24,985 nt of DNA from a virus. The stretch covers positions 1 to 24,985 of IMG/VR virus record IMGVR_UViG_3300027754_000412, one strand, 5' to 3'. The translations under genes and the position numbers were made by a program. Under the pieces are notes generated by a model. The model was not told the DNA's origin. It worked only from the letters and a program-made list of their open reading frames with translations, and ran no database searches. This document shows positions 5,537-24,077 of the stretch, in pieces. Every line of letters begins with the position of its first letter. The first letter of the stretch is position 1.

Positions 5537-6751
5537 TTAGTACGCGCCTGCGCGGTCCCTTGCTAGCGCTCCGCTAGTAATTCCGGTCTGACCACCAAAA
5601 GTAGCCTTCTCAAGTCCGGTAATCTTTTGACGCGCTTTACGTGCTTCTTCTGCGCCAGGAATATTAAAGATTTCTTGCTCTGCTGTTGTCTGTGTATAAG
5701 GACTCTCTTGGTAGATTGAAGCAAGTTGTGAACCACGCTCTAATCCAGCACCAATGGTTGAGTAACCCTTTTCAGCCATAGCCTTGTCAACGCCATACTT
5801 TTGTAGGTACTCAGCATCTGTCATACTTGTTGTAAGGCCAGACCTAAGAGCAGCTCCACCAATTTCGGCAGAAGTTATCTTACGTTTAATATCTTCAAGT
5901 CCCTTTGTTGGATCAAGTGTATAAGCCAAGATATCACCATTAGTAATATCGGGATAGAAGTTCTTAAGTGCATAAGAAACCTCTGGATTAGCATTAAGAA
6001 CACGCTTCTGTGCTGTGGCAATACGGTCTTCCAACTCTACCGCAGAGACATCGTTTGCAATAAACTTCTCAAACCCTGGCTGTGTACCCATAGCATCCTT
6101 TGTATAATAAGATGCTGGTAGTCCATAGTTACGCATAAGTTTTTGATACTGGTCTTCTAATCCAATATATGTTGCTTCGTCAATAGCCCTAAGACCCTTT
6201 GCTACACGTTGTTTATTTGCAGCAAAACGCTTTTGGTAGGCATCAGATTCACGTAGTTTAATAGTAAATTCTGCAGGGGAAGCACCAGATATAATAAGGC
6301 CTTTAAGCGGATCTACTAAAGATGCTAAACCATATTGAGCAAACTGAGAGTAAAGTAAATCATAGGCAGATTGACGCTCTGCTTGACGTCCTGCAGCTGC
6401 AGCTTCTGCTGCAATCTGTGCTTCTGATTTTGGGGCTAAAACATTTCCATTGCCGCCGCCTCCACCGCCACCGCTACCGCCAGCTGCTTGATTCTTTGCA
6501 GCAGTAGCAGTGTTGATAGCTGCACCAATCGCAGCACCAGTTTTACCTGCAATAGCAGCCTTGTATTCAGCGTCAGTTAAATCCCTATTAGGATCATATG
6601 AATCACCAAACTTACCTGTTACTGGGTTTACACCGCCACGTGAAGCAAGATATGCTTCAGCAGTTAAGCCTTGTGATGCTGCATTAGAAGCAATAACACG
6701 TTGTGTGCTAGATGAAAGTCCTGATAAGTTGGTTACAAAATTGTCAGCCAT
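5537..6751 (-). CDS. Large virion protein (404 aa), helical
   Basis: 404 residues. A Gly-rich linker (GGSGGGGGGGNG) near residue 92 separates an N-terminal piece from a helical body. The body has SAYDLLYSQFAQYGLASLVD, then LRESDAYQKRFAANKQR and YIGLEDQYQKLMRNYGLP. The segment with LRxSxAYxxRF recurs in looser form in the neighbouring 540-residue protein (RIRGDVWYKQNSKAIKERF), suggesting shared modules. The location between portal and scaffold and the long helical composition suggest an internal virion or ejection-type protein. This is inferred; no enzymatic motif is visible. Confidence 0.75.
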   Translation of the reverse strand: MADNFVTNLSGLSSSTQRVIASNAASQGLTAEAYLASRGGVNPVTGKFGDSYDPNRDLTDAEYKAAIAGKTGAAIGAAINTATAAKNQAAGGSGGGGGGGNGNVLAPKSEAQIAAEAAAAGRQAERQSAYDLLYSQFAQYGLASLVDPLKGLIISGASPAEFTIKLRESDAYQKRFAANKQRVAKGLRAIDEATYIGLEDQYQKLMRNYGLPASYYTKDAMGTQPGFEKFIANDVSAVELEDRIATAQKRVLNANPEVSYALKNFYPDITNGDILAYTLDPTKGLEDIKRKITSAEIGGAALRSGLTTSMTDAEYLQKYGVDKAMAEKGYSTIGAGLERGSQLASIYQESPYTQTTAEQEIFNIPGAEEARKARQKITGLEKATFGGQTGITSGALARDRAGAY

Positions 6752-18380: not shown

Positions 18381-18448
18381 GGTCTTTCCTATTAAAGCCC
18401 CTTACTATGTATAAGGCAGGAAATTTAGGTCATTTCCCGTTTACGCCG

Positions 18449-18464
18449 TGTGATGTTAGTCACA
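18449..18464. promoter_or_regulatory. CRP/GlxR-type binding site
   Basis: TGTGA (18449-18453), six bases TGTTAG, then TCACA (18460-18464). This is an exact match to the TGTGA-N6-TCACA consensus of the CRP family, which includes GlxR and Crp of actinobacteria. A half-site TGTTAGTCAC is repeated at 18364-18373. The random expectation of a perfect match in a window of this length is about 0.02. A host cAMP-responsive regulator or a phage analogue may act here; inferred. Confidence 0.5.
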
Positions 18465-18600
18465 GTAGATATAACTGCAGGTCAGGCGCCAGATCAGCTT
18501 TCACTTTAGCAAATATTTTTTGTTGGGGAGTACAGGGACCGCCCGCGCAGAATTAAGCAACACGGGGTGCGTGTCTGGCGGTTAGACGGTGCAGAACAGG

Positions 18601-18643
18601 GCAGACGGTAGACATAGCTGGCGGTAATGTCTAAGCGGTCTGC
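18601..18643. promoter_or_regulatory. Inverted repeat 1: TAGACAT-N11-ATGTCTA, extended
   Basis: TAGACAT (18609-18615) and ATGTCTA (18627-18633) pair perfectly around 11 nt. Outside these, GCAGAC (18601-18606) pairs with GTCTGC (18638-18643). The inner arms and the spacer length are the same as in the repeat at 18871. Either a repeated operator or a structured leader. GTCTGC here can alternatively pair with GCAGACC at 18673. Confidence 0.55.
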
Positions 18644-18679
18644 TAAATCTTGCGGGGCTAACTACCTATCGGGCAGACC
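18637..18679. other. Alternative stem, diverged relative of the early two-hairpin element
   Basis: GGTCTGC (18637-18643) and GCAGACC (18673-18679) match the second stem of the two-hairpin element of the early operon. Between them lie TTGCGGGG and CTAACTACCTATCGGG, a loosened version of the repeat's loop. GGTCTGC is shared with the previous inverted repeat, so the two folds are mutually exclusive. Confidence 0.4.
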
Positions 18680-18870
18680 TAACCGCTAACCCCTAACCGC
18701 TTAACTATTGCCAGCGCACCAGCACCAGCGCACCAGCTAGACCGATAGCCCTACCGATAACCGCTAATCTCCCGCGATCTATCACCTAATGAGCTAACCG
18801 ACTAGACCTACCGCGCCAGCTAATCGCCAGCGATAGCCCTAGACCTAATCGCCTAGCCTTAGCCCTAACG

Positions 18871-18901
18871 CCTTAGACATAATCGCGCCTAATGTCTAAG
18901 G
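18871..18901. promoter_or_regulatory. Inverted repeat 2: perfect 10-bp operator-like palindrome
   Basis: CCTTAGACAT (18871-18880) and ATGTCTAAGG (18892-18901) pair perfectly around 11 nt. It ends 10 bases before the -35 of the putative early promoter, so a protein bound here could activate or block it. The core TAGACAT arms and the 11-nt spacing are identical to those at 18609-18633. Confidence 0.55.
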
Positions 18902-18911
18902 TCTAACCAGC

Positions 18912-18939
18912 TCGACACGGTAGAAAATAGTTATAAAAT
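18912..18939 (+). promoter_or_regulatory. Early promoter, sigma-70 type
   Basis: -35 TCGACA (18912-18917, 5 of 6 to TTGACA), 16-nt spacer, -10 TAAAAT (18934-18939, 5 of 6 to TATAAT). Transcription would start near 18946 and give a leader of about 75 nt that includes a CTAGGG (18952-18957) and CCCTAG (18976-18981) pairing. It lies next to the second TAGACAT palindrome. Best candidate for driving the plus-strand operon. Confidence 0.55.
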
Positions 18940-19021
18940 AGCCTTGCCTAACTAGGGTAGCCTCACCTATAGTTAGCCCTAGCGGGATCAAGCTCGCTAC
19001 ATATGAAAGAGGGATAATCTA

Positions 19022-19534
19022 ATGACTACAGCTACAGCAATTAACCTAGAAGATATGACTACAGGCGAGGCTAAATTAACCTTAGATAAGGTTATTAAGC
19101 AGATAGCAGATCAAGAAAATAAAGAGTTAGTAATCGCATATGATGATCTAGTAATAATCGCCTATGCGTTAGAAAATAACCTACAACTACGCGATTACCT
19201 AATGGGCTTAACACGAGACGGGCTAAGCGTTGAAAGTGTTGCGGGTATTTTAACGGTAATGCTAGACCTATTTAAGAGTGCTTATAGATCTACTTACACT
19301 ATCGAGACCGTGCTAGCTAGTTATATGTACCGCCTAGGCGATAGCGCGGGCGCGCTCGTAATGCTCGCTAACGGTATCTCCCGCGACTACTCACTAGCTA
19401 AGCTACTACTACGCGTATTTGATCAAGGCTTAGCGCCCGATAATTTTGCAATTATGGCGCAAGAATTGCACGGTAAAGTAGTAGAAGAATTGACACGCAC
19501 GCAAGAATTGCCAGCTAATGAGGCTAATCGCTAA
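19022..19534 (+). CDS. DUF4192-like protein
   Basis: 170 residues, ATG 19022 with GAGGGA ahead. The C-terminal part (TVLASYMYRLGDSAGALVML and SLAKLLLRVFDQGLAPDNF) follows the pattern seen near the end of DUF4192 proteins of actinobacteria: a helix ending in GD, a stretch of small residues, then SLA-L-L--- followed by P. The function of DUF4192 is unknown. First gene of the early operon. It uses CTA for Leu and is rich in CTAG. Confidence in the gene is high; family is moderate. Confidence 0.75.
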   Translation: MTTATAINLEDMTTGEAKLTLDKVIKQIADQENKELVIAYDDLVIIAYALENNLQLRDYLMGLTRDGLSVESVAGILTVMLDLFKSAYRSTYTIETVLASYMYRLGDSAGALVMLANGISRDYSLAKLLLRVFDQGLAPDNFAIMAQELHGKVVEELTRTQELPANEANR

Positions 19535-19665
19535 TGATTGAGGTTATCTATGCGCTTAGCGCGTTGCTTATGATCGCGGGCTATATTCTCGCGGGCGTTG
19601 CACTATGGGCAATAGTTGAGGCTAGCTATTGGATATATTGCAAGGTGCGCGGTATAGATTACTAG
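19534..19665 (+). CDS. Tiny single-pass membrane protein
   Basis: 43 residues, ATG 19534 overlapping the upstream stop (TAATG). Residues about 2-35 are almost entirely hydrophobic (LLMIAGYILAGVALWAIV in the centre) with a charged CKVRG tail. One membrane helix. Could be an early membrane effector or a holin-like peptide, but it is far from the lysozyme; no family recognised. Confidence 0.6.
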   Translation: MIEVIYALSALLMIAGYILAGVALWAIVEASYWIYCKVRGIDY

Positions 19666-19666
19666 C

Positions 19667-19726
19667 TAGTGGCGTACCGTGGCGCTAGGGGTAATTCCCT
19701 AGCGTTGCGGTCTGCAACTAGGCAGA
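19667..19726 (+). repeat. Two-hairpin RNA element, copy 1
   Basis: Begins TAGTGGCGTACCGT at 19667, next to the stop of the membrane protein. Hairpin A: CGCTAGGG (19683-19690) with CCCTAGCG (19697-19704), 8 bp. Hairpin B: TCTGC (19711-19715) with GCAGA (19722-19726). Short linker GTTGCGG-type. Shares the 5' sequence GCGTACCGT and hairpin B with copies 2 and 3. Hairpin B loop lacks the CCTA/TAGG extension that the others have. Confidence 0.75.
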
Positions 19727-19746
19727 ATAGAAGAGAGGCTAAGAAA

Positions 19747-20364
19747 ATGGACACTATGAAAGATATCGAGCTAGACACGATAACCGTTAGAAAACTAGAC
19801 ACGATAACCGTTAAGGCTAGCGAGCTTAGCGATCTATTAACGGGCGCGAGCGTTGCAATGGATAAGGGTAAAAATGCGCTAAGCGCACTAGGTAGCGTAT
19901 ACCTAAGCGCTACGGGCGATAGCTACCTAGTCGCTAAGGCTAGCGATAGATACCGCCTAATCGAGGGTAAAATCGAGCTAAACGCGGGAGAATTGCAAGA
20001 GTGCCAGCTACGCGCTAATGATGTTAAGAATATCCTCGCAACGATAAAGGCTAATAAGGTAGCTGGCGAGATCACTTTAACCCGCGCTGGCGATACGCTA
20101 AGCGTTGCGGTAGGGGGCAATAGCCTCACTATCGCGCTAGGGGGCGATAAATTCCCGCCATATGCGCACCTATTCGAGCTTGAGCCTAAGCCTATAGATA
20201 AGATTATGTTAAACCCTACTTACCTAGCCTCATTCGATAAAGTGCCAGCTAGTAACGAGGGTAATACCTTTACATTTTACGGGGAGGCTAAGCCTGTAGG
20301 GGTTACGATTAACCATAACCGCATAAGCTGGCGGGCGTTGCTTATGCCTATGAAGATTAAATAG
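19747..20364 (+). CDS. DnaN-like sliding clamp, short form
   Basis: 205 residues from ATG 19747, chosen because it is preceded by AGAGAGGCT and the copy 1 hairpins lie upstream; an earlier GTG at 19669 falls inside the repeat element. The pattern fits beta clamps: GSVYLSATGDSYLVAKASDRYRL (about residues 55-75) as in the clamp's ATDGYRL-type strand, the GDKFPPYAHLFE segment, then KPVGVTI and ISWRALLMPMK at the end as in the terminal VMPMR region of DnaN. Bacterial clamps have about 370 residues in three domains; this has room for about two. It would tether a DNA polymerase to the template. Residues about 9-23 hold a tandem LDTITV repeat. Confidence 0.78.
   Translation: MDTMKDIELDTITVRKLDTITVKASELSDLLTGASVAMDKGKNALSALGSVYLSATGDSYLVAKASDRYRLIEGKIELNAGELQECQLRANDVKNILATIKANKVAGEITLTRAGDTLSVAVGGNSLTIALGGDKFPPYAHLFELEPKPIDKIMLNPTYLASFDKVPASNEGNTFTFYGEAKPVGVTINHNRISWRALLMPMKIK
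19771..19813 (+). repeat. Tandem duplication in the clamp gene
   Basis: CTAGACACGATAACCGTTA occurs at 19771-19789 and again at 19795-19813, period 24 nt (8 codons), encoding LDTITVRK then LDTITVKA. A short recent duplication that stays in frame. Confidence 0.85.
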
Positions 20365-20380
20365 GGTAGGCTAACCTAGT

Positions 20381-20441
20381 CTATTTATTATCTCTCACTC
20401 TCTCCTAGCTGTAGCGGGAGAGGGTGAGGGAGGGTAAATAG
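20381..20441 (+). other. Long hairpin after the clamp gene
   Basis: TCTCACTCTCTCC (20393-20405) pairs with GGAGAGGGTGAGG (20417-20429) over 13 bp with two G-U pairs. Outer arms CTATTTA (20381-20387) and TAAATAG (20435-20441) add 7 bp. Lies in the 101-nt gap after the clamp stop. No U-run follows. An RNase III-type processing site, a partial terminator or an mRNA stability element could explain it; undecided. Confidence 0.6.
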
Positions 20442-20465
20442 CCCTAATGAGAGAGAGGTAAGAAA

Positions 20466-20957
20466 ATGAGCGCATATATGGTGAACGAGGACACGCTAGA
20501 CCTATTAGCTAGCGTCGCGGTATGGTCTAACCACGGTCTATTTATTTACGCTAGCGAGGGATCGCTACCGCCACGCGGTGAGCTTGAGTATGCGGGCGAG
20601 GGTGAGAGTGTGTATTACCGCGCTAGTCACCTTAAGGATATCAAGAAAGAGCTACGCCTAGAAAATATCGCTAGCCTTAACGCTCGCTACCCTAGCGACG
20701 CGGGATTAGCAGATGAGGGCGCACCCTTTAAGGCTATTTATAGGGATCAAGCTACTTATGGCGAGGTATTAGGCGCGTTAGCGTGTTATGAATATCAAGC
20801 GTGCGAAAGTGATAGCTGGCGCAATAGCTACGCTCACCTATTATGCGTAGCAATTCGCAAGGCTATCTGCGGTCTCATAAGTGAGGGAGAATGGGAATAT
20901 GAGCGCCCTACAGGGCAAGCGCAACGCGTAAGCCTAATGGAAATGATCAACGAATGA
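20466..20957 (+). CDS. Conserved early protein (163 aa), function unknown
   Basis: 163 residues, ATG 20466 with GAGAGAGGT ahead. Contains ACYEYQACESDSWRNSYAHL near residues 106-125 (YxYQxxE followed by W and an Ala/Leu helix), a pattern I have seen in small hypothetical proteins of actinobacteria and their phages. The mid region is acidic. Overlaps the next gene (ATGA). Function unknown. Confidence 0.7.
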   Translation: MSAYMVNEDTLDLLASVAVWSNHGLFIYASEGSLPPRGELEYAGEGESVYYRASHLKDIKKELRLENIASLNARYPSDAGLADEGAPFKAIYRDQATYGEVLGALACYEYQACESDSWRNSYAHLLCVAIRKAICGLISEGEWEYERPTGQAQRVSLMEMINE

Positions 20958-21142
20958 GCGCGAGGGTTGAGCTAACCGCTATCCGCGACGGTAACGCTAT
21001 CCTAGGTAATTTTTACAGGGTGAGCGCGTGGCAAGGTAGCAGATACCTAGGCGAGCAGATCTACGCGGGCTATAACAAGCGCGAGAGTATTAGGCGAGCG
21101 CGGGAAACTATTAAAGATCGAGGCGAGCTATTCGCTAGCTAG
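20954..21142 (+). CDS. Small early protein (62 aa)
   Basis: 62 residues, ATGA overlap with the upstream gene. Two parts: a beta-rich start (VELTAIRDGNAILGNFYRVS) and a helical end (YNKRESIRRARETIKDRGEL). The Y-x-K-R-E-S/A-I-R pattern is common among small phage proteins. No function known. Same CTAG-rich codon use as the preceding genes. Confidence 0.65.
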   Translation: MSARVELTAIRDGNAILGNFYRVSAWQGSRYLGEQIYAGYNKRESIRRARETIKDRGELFAS

Positions 21143-21209
21143 TTGCGTACCGTAGGGCATAGGCGCGAGCTTATGCCTTGCGGTCTGCACCTAACCAATA
21201 GGGCAGACC
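21140..21209 (+). repeat. Two-hairpin RNA element, copy 2
   Basis: Begins with the stop codon of the preceding gene, TAGTTGCGTACCGT. Hairpin A: GGCATAGGC (21156-21164) with GCTTATGCC (21169-21177), 9 bp with one G-U and a GCGA (GNRA) tetraloop. Hairpin B: GGTCTGC (21182-21188) with GCAGACC (21203-21209), with inner CCTA/TAGG pairs. A 4-nt linker separates them. The arms of A are unrelated to those of copy 1. Confidence 0.78.
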
Positions 21210-21258
21210 TTACCCGTAGACGCGGGCGAGGGAGAGAGAAAGAGGGAGAGGGCGGGCT

Positions 21259-21354
21259 ATGGATATACAGCTAGCTTATGTAGTAAGGCTTAACGGTAAA
21301 GGTAAAGGCTCTATTGAATATATACCAGCAGAAGAATACGAGAGGGAAGAGTAA
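21259..21354 (+). CDS. Tiny early protein (31 aa)
   Basis: 31 residues, ATG 21259 preceded by GAGAGGGCGGG. Ends in YEREE, the last codons of which carry the GAGAGGGAAGAG ribosome-binding site of the next gene, and its TAA overlaps the next ATG (TAATG). No motif. Support is the packing and the SD. Confidence 0.5.
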   Translation: MDIQLAYVVRLNGKGKGSIEYIPAEEYEREE

Positions 21355-21446
21355 TGACATATAGAAAATTGCAAGAGTTAGAAGATCACCTAGAAGAGCG
21401 ATACCTTATGTGGGAATTTAATTCATATGATAGAGGGAGAGAGTAA
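21354..21446 (+). CDS. Tiny early protein (30 aa)
   Basis: 30 residues, start overlapping the upstream stop as TAATG. It is helical and acidic (QELEDHLEERYLMWEF), ends DRGRE because the last codons encode the AGAGGGAGAG site of the next gene. Also ends with TAATG. Coupled translation is likely. Function unknown. Confidence 0.5.
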   Translation: MTYRKLQELEDHLEERYLMWEFNSYDRGRE

Positions 21447-21607
21447 TGCAACTACAGGAGATAGATACCTTGCAAGATCTAAAGCTATGGGTGGAAGAGA
21501 ATATGCCTAGTGCAGATGTATATGAAGATATGTATGGCACGCTAGTAATTCGCACGAATTTAATCTCCACTATGGGTGGATACTTACACGAGAAAGAGAG
21601 AGAATAA
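21446..21607 (+). CDS. Small early protein (53 aa)
   Basis: 53 residues, ATG 21446 with AGAGGGAGAGAG ahead, TAATG overlap. Contains LQDLKLWVEENMPSADVYED. Ends in HEKERE, with the codons forming the purine-rich site of the next gene. Next ATG follows immediately. No family recognised. Confidence 0.55.
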   Translation: MQLQEIDTLQDLKLWVEENMPSADVYEDMYGTLVIRTNLISTMGGYLHEKERE

Positions 21608-21769
21608 ATGAACGATTATGTAGTGTTGGTTGATATAAAGGGAGAGGCTATCTCTTTAGGTGCAGACAACAACGAGCAAGCTATAGCGCAAGCCAAAGAT
21701 ATCATTAAAGAGCAATACGGGCAGAGCGTTGCAAGTGACGCTATTTATACACTAGAGGGAGAGGGCTAA
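21608..21769 (+). CDS. Small early protein (53 aa)
   Basis: 53 residues, starting directly after the previous stop. Pattern YVVLVDIKGEAISLGA then EQAIAQAKDIIKEQYG recalls a short beta-alpha unit. Ends LEGEG, coding the GAGGGAGAGG site of the next gene, with which it overlaps (TAATG). Function unknown. Confidence 0.58.
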   Translation: MNDYVVLVDIKGEAISLGADNNEQAIAQAKDIIKEQYGQSVASDAIYTLEGEG

Positions 21770-21984
21770 TGAATAAGCAAGAGGTATTAGAGGCTATAGA
21801 TTCAACCGCTAATTTTAATGCGTTCATTGAAGGGATAGATACTCTTAATGGGCAAGCACTAGGGCTGGTGATAGATGTAGCTGGCGTGGACGGTGAAGAG
21901 TGGACGGACGAAGAATGTCTAGAGACGATTAAAGAGATAGTTGATATGGCAAACGCATATCGGAATACTCATAGCTGGACTTAG
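21769..21984 (+). CDS. Small acidic early protein (71 aa)
   Basis: 71 residues, ATG 21769, overlap of one base with the upstream stop and a strong GAGGGAGAGG ahead. Acidic helices (EEWTDEECLETIKEIVDMAN). No known motif. It ends with TAG, which is also the first base triplet of repeat copy 3. Confidence 0.62.
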   Translation: MNKQEVLEAIDSTANFNAFIEGIDTLNGQALGLVIDVAGVDGEEWTDEECLETIKEIVDMANAYRNTHSWT

Positions 21985-22050
21985 TTGCGTACTGTCATAG
22001 CCTACCAATGGGGTAGGCTGTGGTAGTCTGCACCTAACCGATAGGGCAGA
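21982..22050 (+). repeat. Two-hairpin RNA element, copy 3
   Basis: Begins at the stop codon, TAGTTGCGTACTGT. Hairpin A: AGCCTACC (21999-22006) with GGTAGGCT (22012-22019), 8 bp. Hairpin B: TCTGC (22027-22031) with GCAGA (22046-22050), with inner CCTA/TAGG. The loop CTAACCGATAGGGCAGA is nearly the same as in copy 2. Arms of hairpin A differ fully from copies 1 and 2. Confidence 0.78.
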
Positions 22051-22072
22051 ATACGAAAGAGGGAGAAAGATA

Positions 22073-22213
22073 ATGAGTAAAGAGATACTTACCTGCTCAA
22101 ATTGCGGGTACGAAACGGAAGAGATAAGCACGATCACAGAGCTATGTCAGACCTGTAAAAATGCTTATGACTTAGGTTATGAGGCAAAGGCACAGGAAGG
22201 AGAAATCGAATGA
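22073..22213 (+). CDS. Small zinc-ribbon protein (46 aa)
   Basis: 46 residues, ATG 22073 with AAGAGGGAGAAAG ahead. TCSNCGYE (Cys 8, 11) and LCQTCKN (Cys 25, 28) form a CxxC...CxxC pair with a 13-residue spacer, enough for a small zinc ribbon. Overlaps the next gene (ATGA). Nucleic acid or protein contact is likely but not shown. Confidence 0.65.
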   Translation: MSKEILTCSNCGYETEEISTITELCQTCKNAYDLGYEAKAQEGEIE

Positions 22214-22443
22214 GCAAGCTATATCACTATGTAGTTATATGGAGCGAGGAAGAGGGCTGGCAAATAGATAATGAGGGAGAAGAATCAGCCTTTCGTAATG
22301 GAACTATCTACAATAACGAGACACGCTGCTGGGAATTTGGATACCTAGGAGAGGGTAAATATAACGGTAAAGAAGAAGAGCTAACCGAGACTCTTACCGA
22401 TATCTTGGATCTTCATAACACTATGAAAGGGGTGGTCAAGTGA
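22210..22443 (+). CDS. Small early protein (77 aa)
   Basis: 77 residues, ATG 22210 with AAGGAGAAAT ahead. Begins MSKLYHYVVIWSEEEGWQID and has RCWEFGYLGEGKYNGKEEEL, a beta-rich acidic pattern. No family recognised. Its TGA overlaps the next GTG. Confidence 0.6.
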   Translation: MSKLYHYVVIWSEEEGWQIDNEGEESAFRNGTIYNNETRCWEFGYLGEGKYNGKEEELTETLTDILDLHNTMKGVVK

Positions 22444-22583
22444 GCCATTATGACGGTGATCCATTCAGTAATCACGAGCTTAATGAAGTGAAGTGTGCAG
22501 AGTGCTCAGAGTACTTTGACGATCAAGAGGGAGAGGGCAATATCTGCCCCGCCTGTATAGAGAAAGAGGGAGAGAGTAAATGA
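22440..22583 (+). CDS. Small zinc-ribbon protein (47 aa)
   Basis: 47 residues from GTG 22440 overlapping the upstream stop. KCAECSEYF (Cys 19, 22) and ICPACIEK (Cys 36, 39) give a CxxC-x13-CxxC ribbon. It ends EKEGESK, the codons of which form the GAGGGAGAG site of the next gene. Confidence 0.6.
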   Translation: MSHYDGDPFSNHELNEVKCAECSEYFDDQEGEGNICPACIEKEGESK

Positions 22584-22765
22584 ACTACACTTGCGATAAA
22601 TGTAAAGCAGATTTTGAAGATGACGACATAGTGTGGGCCAATGAAAACGGCCAACTATCACAAGGCCGCAACGAGTTTGCTTGGTGCGTGCCTTGCCTAC
22701 CAGCGCAGGAGGTTTTCTGCGGTGATCATATCCAACCTATCAAAGAATGTGGGTGCTTACTGTGA
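22580..22765 (+). CDS. Small zinc-binding protein (61 aa)
   Basis: 61 residues, ATG 22580 (ATGA overlap). CDKCKADFEDDDIVW, WCVPC and CGDH give CxxC...CxxC plus a CxxH pair, and it ends KECGCLL. Two zinc sites are possible. Fourth gene in a run of small Cys-pair proteins. Confidence 0.6.
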   Translation: MNYTCDKCKADFEDDDIVWANENGQLSQGRNEFAWCVPCLPAQEVFCGDHIQPIKECGCLL

Positions 22766-23255: not shown

Positions 23256-23536
23256 GCGAGAGAAGGTTAGTTGCTGCTGCAAATATGGCAGTACGCCAGC
23301 GTAACTATAGACGAGCGCGAGATCGTGCTTTAGTCAAACTAGCACAACTATATCCGGACGCTTACAAAGAGCTGCTGGAGAGGGAGAAGGCGAATGACGA
23401 AGCGCAAGGTCGTAAGTGGCTTGATATTGACGGTAATACTTCTAATGTGGGTCTACGACCCATTACCACCGTTGAGCACAGCAACGAAGCCAGTAATAAT
23501 AGAGCGTACAAAAGCAACGATGGAGGAGAAGTATGA
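23252..23536 (+). CDS. Small helical protein (94 aa)
   Basis: 94 residues, ATGA overlap. The N-terminal two-thirds has RNYRRARDRALVKLAQLYPD followed by EREKANDEAQGRKWLDIDG, a pattern of helices I have seen in small proteins of actinophages. The last third (after about residue 60) is low in features and lies in the part that overlaps the lysozyme gene. The N-terminal pattern makes the gene plausible. Confidence 0.65.
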   Translation: MSERRLVAAANMAVRQRNYRRARDRALVKLAQLYPDAYKELLEREKANDEAQGRKWLDIDGNTSNVGLRPITTVEHSNEASNNRAYKSNDGGEV

Positions 23537-23825
23537 GAACAGAAGGATCGCAAGAGAATATAGTCGTGCTCTCGGATATACGCCAAGAGAAGCGGCGTGC
23601 CTTAACACCCTTTGGACCGCTGAATCCCGCTTCGACCACCTTGCTCGCCCAAGAGACGCACAGGGCAAGCCAAGAAGCTCGGCTTATGGAATTGCTCAAC
23701 TCCTTGGAGAGCGTAGTGGAGAGCCTGCAATACAAGTCTTACACGGCTTACGATACCTTGACCATCGCTATCGAGGGAGTGCGTGTCGCGCTCTCCAACA
23801 CCATAGAAGTAGAGGGTGGTACTGA
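23394..23825 (+). CDS. Membrane-anchored lysozyme / lytic transglycosylase
   Basis: 143 residues, ATG 23394 with GGAGAGGGAGAAGG ahead. Residues 8-20 (SGLILTVILLMWV) form a hydrophobic signal anchor. The catalytic domain has WTAESRFDHLA (W74, E77), the GIAQLL at 99-104, and a C-terminal LRYLDHRYRGSACRALQHH pattern ending GWY, matching SLT/lysozyme-fold domains in which the Glu in the WxxES motif is catalytic. It cleaves host peptidoglycan, probably at the end of infection. Overlaps two other frames over almost its whole length. Confidence 0.82.
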   Translation: MTKRKVVSGLILTVILLMWVYDPLPPLSTATKPVIIERTKATMEEKYENRRIAREYSRALGYTPREAACLNTLWTAESRFDHLARPRDAQGKPRSSAYGIAQLLGERSGEPAIQVLHGLRYLDHRYRGSACRALQHHRSRGWY

Positions 23826-23835: not shown

Positions 23836-23863
23836 GTGTTCATTTGTTTCCTTTCCAGCACGG

Positions 23864-23901
23864 CTAGCCCTCACCGTTAACCTCTTTCCGGTGGGGGTTA
23901 G
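23864..23901. terminator. Convergent terminator-like hairpin
   Basis: CTAGCCCTCACCG (23864-23876) pairs with CGGTGGGGGTTAG (23889-23901) over 13 bp with two G-U pairs, 12-nt loop. It sits between converging operons and overlaps the FmdB stop codon. No clear U-run on either side, so Rho-independent termination is unproven; a shared bidirectional 3' end is likely. Confidence 0.6.
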
Positions 23902-24077
23902 TGCTTGTAATCGGTAGTATAAAAGCCAACGCCTTTGAATGTGATAGCGGGCGAGGACCAGACACGGTTCATAGGCTTGTGGCAAAGGTTGCACTGCGGG
24001 AACTCTTCTGGGTCTGTCATCTTGCGTTCCATTGTGTATCTATCACCGCACTTGGAGCATTCATATTCGTATGTCAT
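23898..24077 (-). CDS. FmdB-like zinc-ribbon protein (59 aa)
   Basis: 59 residues. ATG 24077 overlaps the upstream stop (ATGA). Begins MTYEYECSKCG with a second pair QCNLCHKPM: Cys 7, 10 and Cys 29, 32. The pattern YEYxCxxCG...CP.C...W is that of FmdB-family putative regulatory zinc ribbons. It ends KGVGFYTTDY, also typical of that family. Small zinc-ribbon proteins like this are found in phages and bacteria. Probable regulator or nucleic-acid binder; family fairly firm, function unknown. Confidence 0.8.
   Translation of the reverse strand: MTYEYECSKCGDRYTMERKMTDPEEFPQCNLCHKPMNRVWSSPAITFKGVGFYTTDYKH

What the first reader, a model, noticed from the sequence alone, without database searches (positions are those of the whole stretch)
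19667..22050. Three-copy two-hairpin RNA element with compensated stems, at stop codons of the early operon
Copies at 19667-19726, 21140-21209 and 21982-22050 each begin with TAGTkGCGTACyGT. Copies 2 and 3 start with the stop codon of a gene and copy 1 lies two bases past one. Each has hairpin A (7-9 bp; arms GCTAGGG, GGCATAGGC and AGCCTACC, so completely different sequences with pairing kept) and, after a 4-7 nt linker, hairpin B (TCTGC/GCAGA, with CCTA/TAGG inside in copies 2 and 3). Sequence change with kept pairing is the signature of a structured RNA under selection. A looser fourth relative lies at 18637-18679. Two adjacent hairpins recall the put RNA elements of phage HK022, which cause antitermination, but the sequences are not put. 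Alternatives are RNase III processing sites, a regulatory protein binding site, or differential-expression terminators.
Basis: partly seen in the sequence, partly recalled or inferred. Interest (0 to 1): 0.85.

Follow-up and report, generated by a model that had tools for sequence, protein, structure and literature searches.

The report
Paired-hairpin RNA elements bracketing phage clamp gene
Between the early genes of viruses that probably infect freshwater actinobacteria sits a previously uncatalogued folded RNA element, kept in shape while its letters are almost wholly replaced and placed on both sides of the DNA sliding-clamp gene, where it probably helps cut or cap the shared messenger RNA so that this gene can be expressed separately.

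Summary
The three window copies (19666-19728, 21139-21209, 21981-22052) each have a ~16-bp hairpin A followed, with no linker, by hairpin B; a covariance model built without them finds all three (E 1e-8 to 1e-11). I collected 131 distinct copies from over 80 IMG/VR stretches. Stems A and B pair in 98-99.6% of cells with compensatory changes at every counted pair, and G.U outnumbers A.C 295 to 6, so this is + strand RNA. The 5' strand also pairs with hairpin B's 5' side, extending A from ~14 to ~22 bp; this pairing covaries and, in one class, excludes B. Copies fill gaps between a stop codon and the next start and flank the sliding-clamp gene: in 43 clamp loci chosen by protein alone, strong hairpins lie upstream in 38/43 and downstream in 40/41, versus 10/809 control windows. 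No Rfam match. Hosts are probably freshwater actinobacteria. Best mechanism (inferred, 0.42): RNase III-type processing site leaving A as 3' cap and B as 5' cap. Put-like antitermination is not supported.

The parts
19666..19728 (+). Element 1 (class I, short hairpin B), between ORF 19534-19665 and the clamp gene
   Evidence: R1 match 55 bits, E 1.2e-11, not in training
19676..19711 (+). Element 1 hairpin A: 16 bp, arms 19676-19691 and 19696-19711
   Evidence: sequence and fold
19711..19726 (+). Element 1 hairpin B (TCTGC-AACTAG-GCAGA); its loop 19716-19721 also complements 19666-19671 (helix P0)
19747..20364 (+). Sliding-clamp (DnaN-like) gene, 205 aa, bracketed by elements 1 and 2
   Evidence: phrog_947 processivity factor E 2e-9; AlphaFold pLDDT 88.9; Foldseek to DnaN clamps E 1e-9
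20377..20448 (+). Element 2 (class V), directly downstream of the clamp gene: hairpin A arms 20392-20406/20416-20430, hairpin B AGGGT/GCCCT 20431-20445, alternative P0 CTATTTA 20381-20387 with TAAATAG 20435-20441
   Evidence: R2 77 bits (it was in the training set); covariation over 16 relatives
21139..21209 (+). Element 3 (class I, long hairpin B), begins at the stop codon of ORF 20954-21142
   Evidence: R1 42.4 bits, E 1e-8
21149..21184 (+). Element 3 hairpin A: 16 bp, arms 21149-21164 and 21169-21184
21184..21207 (+). Element 3 hairpin B
21981..22052 (+). Element 4 (class I, long hairpin B), begins at the stop codon of ORF 21769-21984
   Evidence: R1 43.7 bits, E 5.4e-9
21991..22027 (+). 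Element 4 hairpin A: 16 bp, arms 21991-22006 and 22012-22027
22027..22050 (+). Element 4 hairpin B

Best explanation
A family of cis-acting, intercistronic RNA elements of freshwater actinophages. Shown by sequence analysis: each copy is coding-strand RNA with strands alpha - hairpin A - alpha' - alpha''. Hairpin A (12-18 bp, median 14 in the counted part) carries a nearly invariant U.G pair near its base. Hairpin B starts at the next nucleotide. Alpha, at or just after the upstream stop codon, can pair with alpha', which turns A into an imperfect helix of about 22 bp and, in class V, excludes hairpin B. Inferred: the extended helix is cut by a host RNase III-type enzyme in the mismatched zone at the A/B junction. 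The upstream mRNA then ends in hairpin A (3' cap) and the downstream mRNA starts with hairpin B (5' cap), so the clamp gene and neighbouring segments become separate, stabilised messages. The stop codon in or next to alpha would let a terminating ribosome hold alpha and so delay cutting (inferred, weaker).
For: Intercistronic position: stop codon at -9 to +1 of the element start in 107 of 113 assignable cases, next ATG 13-31 nt after the element in 100 of 122. Both sides of the clamp gene in 43 of 48 element-selected loci; in independent protein-selected loci a strong hairpin upstream in 38/43 and downstream in 40/41 versus 10/809 control windows. Extended helix 19-26 bp, at least 20 in 130/131, while A alone has median 14; this straddles the roughly 20-22 bp that RNase III needs (general knowledge). 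The two conformers are close in predicted energy (mean difference +0.9 to -4.3 kcal/mol on about -33 in the main groups). No linker between A and B in all classes. Precedent: T7 early intergenic site R1.1, 60 nt with an internal loop, cut by RNase III (PMC6121014); a 5'-terminal stem-loop can stabilise mRNA (title in the reference list of PMC3997798).
Against: No cleavage data of any kind. The nuclease is not identified; 19 phage records show no PF00636 RNase III, so a host enzyme must be assumed. The fixed letters GCGTAC/GTCTGC in class I and the near-invariant U.G pair are more than a generic dsRNA nuclease needs. P0 is weak in class I (75.6% of cells paired over all classes), and in class I-long copies A+B is slightly favoured, so the substrate would be a minor conformer there. 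Whether P0 and B exclude each other or form a pseudoknot is open for classes I-III.
Confidence: 0.42

Rival explanations
1. Translation-sensing switch: a ribosome terminating at the stop codon covers alpha, so hairpin B forms; without translation alpha pairs with alpha' and the extended hairpin forms. The switch tunes expression of the next gene without cleavage.
For: Stop codon within reach of alpha in 107/113 copies; alpha, alpha' and alpha'' behave as competing strands, strictly so in class V; conformers close in energy.
Against: The ribosome-binding site lies downstream of hairpin B and is in neither fold; no terminator U-tract follows B, so no output is visible. Closeness to the stop may just reflect compact genomes.
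Confidence: 0.2
2. Passive mRNA stabiliser or decay barrier between cistrons (REP-like), protecting the upstream message from 3' exonucleases without specific cutting.
For: Strong hairpin directly after stop codons, on the coding strand.
Against: Does not explain the conserved hairpin B, P0 covariation, the near-invariant U.G pair, or placement on both sides of one gene.
Confidence: 0.15
3. Binding site for a phage or host RNA-binding protein, for example autoregulation by a replication protein.
For: U.G pair in 127 of 131 elements and UAUC/GGUR at the base of A in most classes; class-specific fixed letters.
Against: Sequence classes differ almost completely, so one protein would have to read shape; no candidate protein identified. 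Part of the UAUC/GGTRG motif was imposed by the search pattern.
Confidence: 0.14
4. Put-like processive antitermination element acting on RNA polymerase.
For: Two adjacent hairpins recall put (from memory).
Against: Several copies per genome at internal stop codons; terminator-like sites in the early region equal the shuffled number (5 found, 5.0 expected); sequence replaced between classes.
Confidence: 0.05
5. DNA-level feature (cruciform, recombination or replication site).
For: Near-perfect inverted repeats.
Against: 295 G.U-type against 6 A.C-type pairs on the + strand; always oriented with the genes and between cistrons.
Confidence: 0.01

Closest known systems
Phage T7 early-region RNase III processing sites (such as R1.1)
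   Same: Intercistronic, several per early operon, irregular hairpins of about 60 nt with a mismatched zone, on the coding strand; would cut a polycistronic mRNA into segments.
   Different: Here a second covarying hairpin abuts the first, a third strand competes, a near-invariant U.G pair is kept, and one gene (the clamp) is bracketed across a whole phage group. Cutting is not shown.
Lambda sib retroregulation element (from general knowledge)
   Same: A short stable hairpin and a longer RNase III-sensitive extended helix as alternatives.
   Different: Sib depends on terminator read-through; here no terminator U-tract, and the elements are internal to the operon.
HK022 put RNAs (from general knowledge)
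   Same: Two adjacent hairpins.
   Different: Not promoter-proximal, no excess of terminators to read through, third competing strand, sequence replaced between classes.
Transcription attenuators (trp-type alternative pairing; general knowledge)
   Same: Competing strands near a stop codon.
   Different: No terminator hairpin with U-tract.

Membership tests
Any Rfam 15 family | Match at gathering score, or any match up to E 1 | tested here: not met
   0 matches in the window and 0 at E<=1 in five loci that carry elements
T7-type RNase III processing site | Located between cistrons of a polycistronic early transcript, coding strand | tested here: met
   transcription itself is assumed from gene order
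T7-type RNase III processing site | Irregular double helix of about 20 bp or more | tested here: met
   extended conformer at least 20 bp in 130 of 131 elements; predicted, not probed
T7-type RNase III processing site | Cleavage by RNase III | not testable with these tools
   needs in-vitro cleavage or RNA-end mapping
Intrinsic terminator | GC-rich hairpin followed by a U-tract | tested here: not met
   no U-tract after B in the window copies; no + strand terminator-like site at any of the four elements
put antitermination RNA | Promoter-proximal, upstream of terminators to be read through | tested here: not met
   internal positions at stop codons; terminator-like sites at the shuffled level
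put antitermination RNA | Acts on RNA polymerase | not testable with these tools
   needs a read-through assay
H-type pseudoknot RNA | Loop of hairpin B pairs with the 5' strand while stem B persists | tested here: inconclusive
   P0 and B both covary, but in class V they share columns and exclude each other

The most novel reading that the evidence does not exclude
A new class of three-strand RNA switch in viruses that reads termination of translation at the upstream stop codon and thereby decides whether the polycistronic message is cut, producing separately capped messages for the replication clamp.
Probability: 0.17. Interest if true: 0.92.

Novelty: new variant of a known kind. Interest (0 to 1): 0.77.

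Why it matters
It is an abundant structured RNA family with no Rfam entry, in phages that by their WhiB genes and terminase kinship probably infect the dominant freshwater actinobacteria. The architecture survives near-total sequence replacement and is tied to one replication gene, which makes post-transcriptional control of a phage early operon in an actinobacterial host directly testable. If processing is confirmed, the elements are compact, varied natural parts for separating cistrons.

Tried and rejected
(1) First pattern TTGCGTACYGTN{18,45}GTCTGCAC: 13 stretches, only L014 a true relative, the rest chance. (2) Bacterial and archaeal genomes: no match to the element pattern and no clamp relative, so no prophage or host link that way. 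(3) Clamp by tblastn in INPHARED phages: none. (4) Isolated Planktophila phage F5 (OX376641, L107/L108): its terminase is 48% identical to the window's, but it has no R1 match in the part searched; a hairpin list of F5 gave one vaguely similar site that I do not count. (5) Stop-codon readthrough: rejected because in copies with the 42-nt core an in-frame TAG recurs in GGTAG at the 3' end of hairpin A (read from the sequences), and downstream genes have their own starts and ribosome-binding sites. (6) Ribozyme: rejected because no unpaired core is conserved between classes. (7) Phage-encoded RNase III: none in 19 records. (8) The site at 18637-18679: not recovered. (9) Paper searches found no earlier description; the library lacks most subscription papers.

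Full report
What was claimed and what is there. All three are present on the + strand at the stated places. Folding shows that hairpin A is about 16 bp in every copy (arms 19676-19691/19696-19711, 21149-21164/21169-21184, 21991-22006/22012-22027) and that hairpin B (TCTGC/GCAGA) follows without a linker.

It is a family. Two pattern scans of IMG/VR gave 39 and 84 stretches; nearly all hits of the first fold into the same architecture. A covariance model (R1) was built from 29 copies of other phages; none of the window's copies was in it. It finds the three window copies at E 1.2e-11, 5.4e-9 and 1.0e-8. With the window's three, 153 non-overlapping copies, 131 of them distinct, were collected from the fetched loci. 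No Rfam family matches, even at E<=1.

Sequence classes. R1 also recovered copies with other letters: class II (CCGG/CCGG in hairpin B), class III (TATCT/AGATA) and an A/T-rich class I call IV, counted with III. Gaps next to the clamp gene that R1 left empty hold a further class V, with AGGGC/GCCCT in hairpin B. Model R2 for class V finds 42 copies at 27 bits or more in the loci and marks window 20377-20448; that stretch was in its training set, so its score is not independent.

Covariation. On 103 distinct composite sequences (classes I-IV, inner part of stem A left out), helix A pairs in 98.1% and helix B in 99.6% of cells, and all 7 and all 5 pairs show changes on both sides; none of 500 shuffles and no slid version comes near. 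Caveats: the first pattern imposed TCTGC and GCAGA, the second imposed TATC and GGTRG, and R1 itself favours A and B; the composite was cut by a script that looks for pairing. The interior of stem A was not imposed, and classes II-V lie outside the patterns. Counting stem A pairs, T-G/G-T number 295 and A-C/C-A 6, the mark of RNA read from the + strand rather than of a DNA palindrome; well over a hundred of the 295 are the one conserved U.G pair, present in 127 of 131 elements.

A third, competing helix. The 5' strand (columns 1-6, usually NTAGNN or CTAANN) pairs with the 5' side of hairpin B's loop region. It is weak in class I but complete in most of class II with different sequences (CTAGTT/AACTAG, CTAAGC/GCTTAG, CTAGAC/GTCTAG, CTAGGT/ACCTAG). 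Overall 75.6% of cells pair, and 5 of 6 pairs show double changes. This pairing extends hairpin A from median 14 bp to median 22 bp. In class V the extended helix and hairpin B share columns; the extended helix shows double changes, while hairpin B varies only by wobbles, so there they must be alternatives. In classes I-III a pseudoknot is also possible. Predicted energies of the two conformers differ by +0.9 (class I-long), -3.1 (I-short), -4.3 (II) and -2.9 (III-long) kcal/mol on about -33.

Where the elements sit. The upstream stop codon lies at -9 to +1 of the element start in 107 of 113 assignable copies, and the next ATG 13-31 nt after the element in 100 of 122. In 19 phage records the confident matches lie in one cluster per record. 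The cluster surrounds a gene of about 200 aa. This protein matches a PHROG processivity factor; its AlphaFold model (pLDDT 88.9) matches bacterial DnaN clamps (Foldseek E 1e-9). Of 48 distinct clamp genes in element-selected loci, 43 have an element on both sides and all have at least one. That set is biased, so I fetched clamp loci by protein alone: of 43 distinct contigs not used before, models R1/R2 see both sides in 25 and at least one in 37. A sequence-blind hairpin score finds a strong hairpin upstream in 38/43 and downstream in 40/41, against 10/809 control windows more than 700 nt away. By eye, most of the model-negative flanks hold the same hairpin pair in new letters. The contigs are related to each other, so these are counts, not independent trials.

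Host. WhiB-like genes occur in 16 of 19 records, and the window's terminase is 48% identical to that of F5, a phage of 'Ca. Planktophila' (PMC10202952). This points to freshwater actinobacteria (inferred). The searched part of F5 has no R1 match.

Mechanism. I consider an RNase III-type processing site most likely (0.42). It accounts for the intercistronic position, the bracketing of one gene, the switch between a helix too short and one long enough for RNase III, and the missing linker, which would give a flush 3' hairpin on one product and a flush 5' hairpin on the other. Shown: structure, competition in class V, location. Inferred: cutting, the enzyme, capping, gating by the ribosome. Known analogues are the T7 sites (R1.1 described in PMC6121014) and, from general knowledge, lambda sib. 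Translation-sensing without cutting, passive stabilisation, protein binding and antitermination remain as rivals with decreasing weight.

Verdict. A real, uncatalogued RNA family with exceptional evolutionary support and an unknown but testable function.

Noticed in passing
window 18400-19010: About 600 nt without convincing genes upstream of the early operon, full of short repeats such as CGATAACCGCTAA; may hold the early promoter or a replication origin.
   Followed up: no
window 23863-23902: Strong hairpin GCTAGCCCTCACCG...CGGTGGGGGTTAGT just after the last + strand early ORF (ends 23835), in front of ORFs on the - strand; could be a bidirectional terminator or a distant relative (R1 only 12 bits).
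   Followed up: partly
window 19747-20364: The clamp homologue has only about 205 aa, roughly half of a bacterial DnaN, so a ring would need more subunits.
   Followed up: partly
window 22073-22765: Several tiny ORFs with paired CxxC motifs (zinc-ribbon-like, 46-61 aa) in the early operon.
   Followed up: no
window 23394-23825: 143-aa ORF with a weak lysozyme-like Pfam match (PF18013, E 0.007) overlapping neighbouring ORFs.
   Followed up: no
L108 (phage F5) about 6664-6705, - strand: Single intergenic hairpin with TAGT/ACTA flanks near a start codon, faintly like the element; not scored by the models.
   Followed up: no
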